From positions 1-38,342 of the forward strand of contig CAJXTP010000002.1 in assembly GCA_913061335.1 (NCBI GenBank): 38,342 bases of DNA, given 5' to 3'. The notes beneath the pieces are model-generated. The model was not told the DNA's origin. It ran no database searches and was given only the letters and a program-made list of their open reading frames with translations. Each line of letters starts with the position of its first letter. Position 1 is the first letter of the stretch. Positions 12,856-13,275 of this stretch are shown piece by piece. The DNA is from an uncultured Loktanella sp. GTDB taxonomy: Bacteria; Pseudomonadota; Alphaproteobacteria; Rhodobacterales; Rhodobacteraceae. Made by a program: the position numbers and the translations under genes.

Positions 12856-12883
12856 TTGAGTATTTAGAACAAAGCGAGATAAA
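12856..12883 (+). promoter_or_regulatory. Candidate sigma-70 promoter for the small plus-strand unit
   Basis: TTGAGT (12856-12861), 16 bases, then GATAAA (12878-12883). Each hexamer matches 4 of 6 consensus positions. It points away from the GST gene toward the 34-codon ORF and terminator-like stem at 12.9-13.05 kb. Without a transcript start site this is only a candidate. Confidence 0.4.
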
Positions 12884-12889
12884 GGTGCC

Positions 12890-13048
12890 CGCTATTAACT
12901 CTTACTTAAGCACGATGTCGAAAACTTACAGGGCGGTACAGGCTGGAGAGCCGATGGCCGTAAAAAGCGAGGCACCGGCGCTCGGTTGCTGCGCCCCTTC
13001 AATGCGGGGAACTCTCTGAGTGTCGGCCCTTTCCCCTCGCTTTTTCGC
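12890..13048 (+). ncRNA. Candidate structured small RNA, possibly dual-function
   Basis: Between the minus-strand RHH-like and GST genes, the plus strand shows a possible promoter, about 155 transcribed bases and a terminator-like end. AAAAAGCGAGG (12962-12972) pairs perfectly with CCTCGCTTTTT (13035-13045). Inside lies GGCGC-9 nt-GCGCC (12977-12995). GGCCG (12956-12960) could pair with CGGCC (13024-13028), crossing the long stem as a pseudoknot or alternative fold. The RNA also contains a 34-codon ORF. I recognise no Rfam family: SRP, 6S, tmRNA and common riboswitch signatures are absent. The stem ends in T-runs on both strands, so it may instead be only a terminator for the minus-strand operon. 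Confidence 0.4.
12915..13019 (+). CDS. Possible 34-aa small protein with a Cys-Cys motif
   Basis: This ORF is too short for the track. It begins MSKTYRAVQAGEPMAVKSEA and ends with GCCAPSMRGTL. Its codons look like those of neighbouring genes (GCC, CGG, GAG), and the frame ends just before the terminator-like stem. No convincing Shine-Dalgarno precedes the ATG, and I know no family. The CC pair could bind metal or be modified, but that is speculation. It lies within the candidate small RNA and may be an accidental frame. Confidence 0.3.
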   Translation: MSKTYRAVQAGEPMAVKSEAPALGCCAPSMRGTL

Positions 13049-13062
13049 AAATACTCACCTTT

Positions 13063-13275
13063 TCAACGCTTGCGGTCCTCTAGCTCGTTTTGAAACATCT
13101 TCAAACGCTGGCCAAACGTGTCCTCATTGATCACCGAATTGAAATTCTCGAACAAAAACGACAGCGCCTCGCCCTCTTCCAACTGACTATCTTTGGCAAA
13201 CCGTTTGAGCCTGCGATATCCGTCCTCTGTCATGGCAACAGGAAAACGGCGGGTTAATCGCAGACGCTTAGGCAT
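13063..13275 (-). CDS. Small ribbon-helix-helix-like protein
   Basis: 70 residues: a basic start (MPKRLRLTRRFPVAMTEDGY), then RRLKRFAKDSQLEEGEALSFLFENFNSV and an acidic/basic helical tail. The layout (short basic strand, then two helices with a turn at EEGEALSFLF) resembles RHH/CopG DNA-binding proteins. The family is not named to me. AAGGAC lies upstream of the ATG. It sits between the acyl-CoA dehydrogenase and the GST-thiolase genes on the same strand, so it may be a local regulator of the operon. No toxin gene accompanies it, which argues against an antitoxin. Confidence 0.7.
   Translation of the reverse strand: MPKRLRLTRRFPVAMTEDGYRRLKRFAKDSQLEEGEALSFLFENFNSVINEDTFGQRLKMFQNELEDRKR

What the first reader, a model, noticed from the sequence alone, without database searches (positions are those of the whole stretch)
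12856..13048. Compact opposite-strand unit: promoter, 34-codon ORF with CC motif, long-range terminator-like stem
Inside the minus-strand beta-oxidation operon, the plus strand has a plausible promoter, a 34-codon ORF (MSKTYRAVQAGEPMAVKSEA...GCCAPSM...) and a perfect 11-bp stem (AAAAAGCGAGG/CCTCGCTTTTT) enclosing further hairpins and a possible pseudoknot. It fits no RNA family I know. It could be a small regulatory RNA, a small Cys-Cys protein, or both, placed where it could act on the flanking RHH/GST/thiolase transcript. This is my best candidate for an undescribed element.
Basis: partly seen in the sequence, partly recalled or inferred. Interest (0 to 1): 0.62.

Follow-up and report, generated by a model that had tools for sequence, protein, structure and literature searches.

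The report
Two-part guide RNA matching scattered sites
The interval encodes an undescribed small RNA, present in most members of one large bacterial family, whose hairpin loop and adjacent single-stranded stretch together spell out the sequence of short sites scattered through the same genome, as if the RNA told an unknown partner where to go.

Summary
The 34-codon ORF is not conserved, and its ATG lies upstream of the predicted transcription start. What is conserved is a small RNA: a hairpin with strong covariation, then an 11-nt exposed stretch, then a 3' hairpin. A covariance model finds 1-7 copies in 236 of 297 family genera, sporadic copies in other alphaproteobacterial families, and none in Rfam. 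Each gene sits beside one or two copies of a 22-bp site, NNN-TATTT-N3-word. In 186 copies the site's NNN usually equals three loop nucleotides of the hairpin, and the word equals the 11-nt stretch apart from a conserved G.U/G.T wobble. The same sites are scattered through the genome. In one genome with four such RNAs, all 29 exact-word sites in 2 Mb carry the NNN of the matching RNA. Sites cluster at gene 3' ends in both orientations. Best explanation: a two-part guide RNA directing an unidentified partner to DNA sites. The code is shown; partner, transcription and function are not. Argonaute, IS110 and TnpB are not obligatory partners.

The parts
12858..12879 (+). Upstream site GAG-TATTT-AGA-ACAAAGCGAGA (NNN 12858-12860, TATTT 12861-12865, N3 12866-12868, word 12869-12879)
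   Evidence: Matches loop GAG and guide of the RNA; same site dispersed in own genome (29 pattern matches incl. the two arms)
12895..12909 (+). TTAA-N7-TTAA box (CtrA-type by resemblance)
   Evidence: TTAA at -39 and -28 from hairpin in aligned copies; TTAA[CG] in -36..-20 in 115/185 vs 1/185 in a control window
12921..12926 (+). -10-like element AAAACT (xAnnnT)
   Evidence: A 72% and T 78% at the two conserved positions over 185 copies
12933..12961 (+). Core hairpin; predicted RNA 5' end at about 12933
   Evidence: 98.9% of cells paired, 6 of 9 pairs with changes on both sides, 0/500 shuffles
12945..12948 (+). Tetraloop G-GAG; GAG (12946-12948) is guide part 1
   Evidence: Loop NNN = NNN of neighbouring sites in 155/186 (up) and 144/186 (down); shuffles max 62/60
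12962..12972 (+). Guide part 2, AAAAAGCGAGG
   Evidence: 11-nt match to site word, mean 1.92 mismatches vs 5.42 shuffled over 309 pairs
12973..13034 (+). Variable hairpin region of the RNA
   Evidence: MFE fold; not conserved between copies
13035..13056 (-). Downstream inverted site GAG-TATTT-GCG-AAAAAGCGAGG; in the RNA strand its word half pairs with the guide and ends in T5 (possible terminator)
   Evidence: 11-bp perfect stem
12915..13019 (+). 34-codon ORF, judged non-coding
   Evidence: ATG in this frame in only 54/185 copies; ATG upstream of predicted TSS
13063..13275 (-). Neighbouring 70-aa conserved protein, no Pfam match; not considered part of the system
   Evidence: next to the RNA at this locus in related genera but not at other loci

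Best explanation
The interval is one gene of a multicopy small-RNA family carrying a two-part guide. Part 1 is three nucleotides of the hairpin tetraloop (G-NNN). Part 2 is the 11 nt after the hairpin. Together they spell the sites NNN-TATTT-N3-word that flank the RNA gene and lie dispersed at gene 3' ends in the same genome. I propose that the RNA loads a protein not yet identified, that the complex recognises the sites as DNA by pairing both guide parts to the strand complementary to the site while the constant TATTT is read by the protein, and that it acts there in an orientation-independent way, for instance as a transcription boundary. The sites beside the RNA gene would give autoregulation. 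Shown: structured RNA family, two-part code, dispersed sites obeying the code, code turnover between genera, location at gene ends. Inferred: transcription, a protein partner, pairing to DNA rather than RNA, and what happens at the sites.
For: Covarying hairpin. Loop code: 155/186 and 144/186 vs shuffled means 45/41, max 62/60; for the 119 non-GAG loops 97/90, against 2/1 if GAG is assigned. Word code: 309 RNA-site pairs, 1.92 vs 5.42 mismatches; 211/309 carry site A / guide G at position 5, which keeps a G.T or G.U pair only with the strand complementary to the site. Within genome G202 with four RNAs, exact-word sites have NNN = GGA 3/3, AAG 10/10, GAG 6/6, CCG 10/10 with a fixed N3 spacer. 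G005 has two RNAs and two matching site dialects. The code also holds in distant families. DNA rather than RNA targets: tandem sites are sense 11 / antisense 10, equally intact; divergent promoters are avoided (2 of 36) and convergent ends enriched (11 of 36, against 147 of 1121 intergenic regions).
Against: No expression data. No adjacent partner gene. Piwi, IS110 and TnpB-type domains are absent from 20, 11 and 15 of 20 RNA-bearing genomes, so no known RNA-guided effector can be named. Guide plus loop is only 14 nt, and in the window the guide can be buried in the 11-bp stem. Gene-3'-end location would also fit an RNA-level or passive-repeat role. Gene calls are from a home-made codon model.
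Confidence: 0.5

Rival explanations
1. RNA-level targeting: the RNA is a trans-acting sRNA, perhaps with Hfq, that pairs by guide and loop with transcripts containing rc(word)-N3-AAAUA-rc(NNN) in 3' UTRs, leaving an A/U-rich loop for Hfq or RNase E and so shaping mRNA 3' ends.
For: Classical sRNA shape (hairpin, single-stranded stretch, 3' hairpin). Hfq is present in 18 of 20 RNA-bearing genomes. Sites follow stop codons, and the pairing tolerates G.U.
Against: About half of tandem sites, and the site upstream of the RNA gene, are oriented so that the mRNA does not contain the target strand, yet they are equally intact. Hfq not found in G844 and G922 (both draft genomes).
Confidence: 0.2
2. 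REP-like or mobile-element system: sites are recombination or transposition ends, and the RNA gives an element-specific nuclease or recombinase its specificity.
For: RNA genes flanked by inverted sites; the cassette is inverted at the recO locus in 3 of 11 genomes; G000 has an inverted site pair without the RNA there; copies near rep genes on plasmids of other families; avoidance of promoters, like REPs.
Against: N3 and flanks are unrelated among sites of one code, so sites do not look like recent copies. RNA paralogues in one genome mostly have different codes. Some genes have both sites upstream. No transposase tied to the RNA.
Confidence: 0.17
3. A code-specific DNA-binding protein reads the sites, and the RNA is a decoy or feedback regulator mimicking the site.
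For: RNA and site carry the same sense sequence; sites lie beside the RNA promoter.
Against: Would need one co-evolving protein per RNA (four in G202); the loop triplet and 11-nt stretch are separated in the RNA by about 15 nt of stem strands, unlike in the site.
Confidence: 0.07
4. Plain intrinsic terminator plus a small Cys-Cys protein, as the first reader also considered.
For: ORF and 11-bp stem ending in T5 are present in the window.
Against: ORF not conserved; hairpin covariation; the stem strands belong to guide and site.
Confidence: 0.01

Closest known systems
IS110 bridge RNA (PMC11208160)
   Same: Non-coding RNA with separate guide segments in structured context, specifying DNA sites
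   Different: Here both guide parts match the same strand, one part is a tetraloop triplet, there is no donor loop, and the IS110 recombinase domain is absent from 11 of 20 RNA-bearing genomes
TIGR-Tas tigRNA (PMC12045711)
   Same: Short split guide (two pieces)
   Different: No tandem array, unequal pieces (3 + 11 nt), both pieces match one strand, whereas TIGR spacers each target a different strand (PMC12045711). No Nop-protein search was run here
TnpB omega RNA / TldR / Cas12-type guide RNAs
   Same: About 11-nt guide next to a structured RNA and a short constant motif in the target
   Different: Guide not at the RNA 3' end; second guide in the loop; constant TATTT lies between the two matched parts; Cas12f1-like_TNB above cut-off in only 3 of 20 genomes, none in the home family
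Hfq-dependent trans-acting sRNAs
   Same: Size, 5' hairpin, exposed stretch, 3' hairpin
   Different: Matches many dispersed intergenic sites in both orientations, with a second loop guide
REP / RAYT repeats and DNA-uptake-sequence dialects
   Same: Tens of short extragenic sites at gene ends, species-specific dialects
   Different: The dialect is written in an RNA; several dialects coexist in one genome with one RNA each

Membership tests
Any Rfam 15 family | Covariance-model match | tested here: not met
   No match at the RNA in the window or in 17 related loci (one chance hit, E 0.74, elsewhere in L034)
Structured RNA (general) | Compensatory covariation of helices | tested here: met
   6 of 9 pairs, 0/500 shuffles, collapse on sliding
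IS110 bridge RNA | Encoded with an IS110 recombinase | tested here: not met
   PF01548 absent in 11/20 RNA-bearing genomes; not among neighbour clusters
IS110 bridge RNA | Separate target and donor loops | tested here: not met
   One conserved hairpin; both guide parts read one site
TIGR-Tas | Tandem array of dual-spacer units | tested here: not met
   Single RNA units at each locus
TIGR-Tas | Spacers A and B target opposite strands | tested here: not met
   Loop and guide match the same strand
TIGR-Tas | Nop-domain Tas protein | not tested
TnpB/Cas12-type guide | TnpB/Cas12 effector present | tested here: not met
   PF07282 above cut-off in 3/20 RNA-bearing genomes, 0/15 of the home family
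Prokaryotic Argonaute guide | Piwi-domain protein | tested here: not met
   PF02171 in 0/20
Hfq-dependent sRNA | Hfq in host | tested here: inconclusive
   18/20; none found in G844 and G922 (draft genomes)
Hfq-dependent sRNA | Base-pairs with mRNA, Hfq-bound in vivo | not testable with these tools
   No RNA data
Small protein gene | Conserved reading frame | tested here: not met
   54/185 copies have an ATG in frame
Guide RNA (sequence criterion) | Guide sequence predicts matching genomic sites | tested here: met
   29/29 exact-word sites carry the matching NNN in G202; 309 RNA-site pairs
Guide RNA (function) | RNA directs a protein to the sites | not testable with these tools
   Needs experiment

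The most novel reading that the evidence does not exclude
A vertically inherited, multi-RNA, RNA-guided DNA-recognition system with a bipartite guide (tetraloop triplet plus 11 nt) marks tens to about a hundred gene ends per genome, uses none of the known RNA-guided effectors, and its RNA code and genomic sites change together between genera.
Probability: 0.45. Interest if true: 0.95.

Novelty: categorically new. Interest (0 to 1): 0.86.

Why it matters
If the pairing is functional, this is a guide-RNA system unlike CRISPR, TnpB, IS110 or TIGR: the guide is split into a hairpin triplet and a short tail, and several RNAs per cell each address their own set of sites. It appears in most genera of a large marine and soil bacterial family that includes Paracoccus, Ruegeria and Roseovarius (named records). 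The effector, whatever it is, would be a new RNA-guided protein. Even in the most modest reading it is a widespread unannotated RNA family tied to a species-specific repeat, and it explains a class of dispersed motifs at gene 3' ends.

Tried and rejected
Coding ORF: rejected on lack of conservation and a start upstream of the predicted TSS. Known Rfam family: none. Simple terminator: the stem strands belong to guide and site, and a simple scan found a T-run terminator in only 54 of 185 copies. Simple MITE with terminal inverted repeats: sites are scattered singly with random N3, and about a dozen genes have both sites upstream. Adjacent partner protein: neighbour clustering gives housekeeping genes only; five RNA-bearing rhizobial and related plasmids share only ordinary backbone genes. 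Known RNA-guided effectors: Piwi, IS110 and TnpB not universal. IMG/VR viral contigs: no exact core match. Papers: no description found (structured-RNA surveys PMC8632094 and PMC11109978 checked by keyword only). Preprints are not in the library, so an earlier description cannot be excluded.

Full report
Observation. Fold energy alone is ordinary. A search of the window's own genome showed that both ends of the interval, GAGTATTTAGAACAAAGCGAG at 12858 and its inverted partner ending at 13056, recur at dozens of other places. A search of 60 relatives showed that 29 bases in the middle (core CGGTACAGGCTGGAGAGCCGATGG) are 100% identical in genomes where the rest of the locus is different.

Structure and distribution. 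Aligning copies gives a gapless pattern: a hairpin NCGG(U)-ACA-GGCN-G[NNN]-NGCC-GAUG-(A/G)CCGN, then 11 nt, then a variable 3' part. In 84 distinct copies 98.9% of cells pair, 6 of 9 base pairs show changes on both sides, none of 500 shuffles reaches these values and sliding the structure destroys it. Models built from these alignments find 1-7 copies in 236 of 297 genera of the family and sporadic copies in other alphaproteobacterial families; a phylum-wide sample again found them almost only in the home family, where all but one listed member had them. BLAST finds copies on plasmids of Rhizobium, Shinella, Mesorhizobium, Azospirillum and one gammaproteobacterium, Thiothrix. Rfam has nothing.

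Transcript and ORF. Aligned upstream sequence has xAnnnT at -13..-8 and TTAA at -28, often with a second TTAA at -39 (TTAA-N7-TTAA, resembling a CtrA box; that resemblance is from general knowledge). This puts the RNA start just before the hairpin, at about 12933. The ORF's ATG at 12915 is then upstream of the transcript, and the frame has an ATG in only 54 of 185 copies. The ORF is judged non-coding.

The code. In each copy the arms read NNN-TATTT-N3-word. The triplet NNN equals the last three bases of the tetraloop: GAG, GGA, AGG, GGG, GCG, CCG, CGG, AAG, GTG, AGA and TGG loops sit beside GAGTATTT, GGATATTT, AGGTATTT and so on. Observed matches are 155 (upstream) and 144 (downstream) of 186, against 45 and 41 with shuffled loops, maximum 62 and 60 of 1000 shuffles. 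For loops other than GAG, 97 and 90 of 119 match, while assigning GAG to all gives 2 and 1. The word equals the 11 nt after the hairpin: mean mismatch 1.92 against 5.42 shuffled, with identity falling off after position 10. At position 5 the site has A and the guide G in 211 of 309 pairs, and identical-or-wobble is 96% there. This A-to-G asymmetry is what pairing with the strand complementary to the site would tolerate.

Dispersed sites. In genome G202, with four RNAs (loops GGA, AAG, GAG, CCG), 2.0 Mb were read. Searching only TATTT-N3-word with any NNN gives GGA 3/3, AAG 10/10, GAG 6/6 and CCG 10/10 (first part, with reversed-word controls near zero). G005 has two RNAs and two dialects, ACAAAGCGA and GCAAGATGA, while other genomes show one main dialect (that pattern fixed GAG and part of the word). 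The code also holds for copies from Azospirillum, Defluviicoccus and unnamed alphaproteobacterial families, for example a 13-nt perfect guide match in L384.

Where the sites lie. Of 36 sites in G202, 11 are between convergent genes, 11 tandem sense, 10 tandem antisense, 2 divergent and 2 inside genes. Background intergenic regions are 705 tandem, 269 divergent and 147 convergent. Sites follow stop codons and avoid promoters, with no orientation preference. Many, but not all, are preceded by a hairpin (GCCTCCGGCGG or GGGGG..CCCCC-ACCCCC). N3 and flanks differ among sites of one code. In close relatives some sites are shared and some absent with a shorter spacer.

Mechanism. Identity of two separate RNA segments with two separate parts of a site, conserved through many different codes and within single genomes with several codes, is hard to explain without base pairing or shared recognition. 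Equal preservation of sense and antisense sites, and of the site upstream of the RNA's own start, favours DNA as the target; I hold this at about even odds. An RNA-level role, or a mobile-element role, is less likely but open. Inversion of the cassette between its two sites at the recO locus in 3 of 11 genomes keeps recombination in play. No partner is adjacent. Piwi, IS110 and TnpB domains are missing from most or many RNA-bearing genomes, and Hfq is present in 18 of 20.

Known kinds. The nearest are IS110 bridge RNAs (PMC11208160) and TIGR guides (PMC12045711), both with split guides. Neither fits: no array, no donor loop, both parts on one strand, unequal lengths, and no universal IS110. 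Nop-domain proteins were not searched. Literature searches found no description, but preprints are not held.

Limits. No transcript data; copies were found with models trained on the family; gene calls for site context are approximate; E-values from the models are rough; the copy set includes related sequences, so shuffles are not strict probabilities. The within-genome result does not depend on relatedness between genomes.

Noticed in passing
L060 around 1501 (G000:C5:9120): At the DUF1491-recO intergenic region, where other genomes carry the RNA gene, the window's genome has only an inverted pair of sites with a spacer of about 17 bp and no RNA.
   Followed up: partly
L022, L029, L035 versus L019-L021, L024, L027, L030, L032, L036: At the recO locus the RNA cassette between the inverted sites is in the opposite orientation in 3 of 11 genomes, suggesting inversion at the sites.
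   Followed up: partly
L397 (G000:C286:1741): A second RNA of the family in the window's genome, with loop ACA and a degenerate ACATATAT site upstream.
   Followed up: no
L115, L118, L139, L140, L163, L174, L215, L221, L233: A second gene layout: two sites back to back upstream of the RNA promoter and none downstream.
   Followed up: partly
L343, L344, L346, L347, L378, L379 and L382, L387, L376: Outside the home family the RNA is often within a few hundred bases of a plasmid replication initiator gene.
   Followed up: partly
L252 4001-5267: On a Cereibacter plasmid the RNA lies about 140 bp upstream of an ISAs1 transposase gene.
   Followed up: no
G016:C1 1.77-2.13 Mb: About ten of nineteen sites of one code cluster within 360 kb around their RNA gene.
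   Followed up: no
window 13063-13275 (-): Conserved 70-aa protein between the RNA and the acyl-CoA dehydrogenase gene, with no Pfam match.
   Followed up: no
L005 1506 and L004 1521: Two site-like matches inside protein-coding genes (one encodes VSIFEKARQIGGQ of a flavoprotein), probably chance.
   Followed up: no
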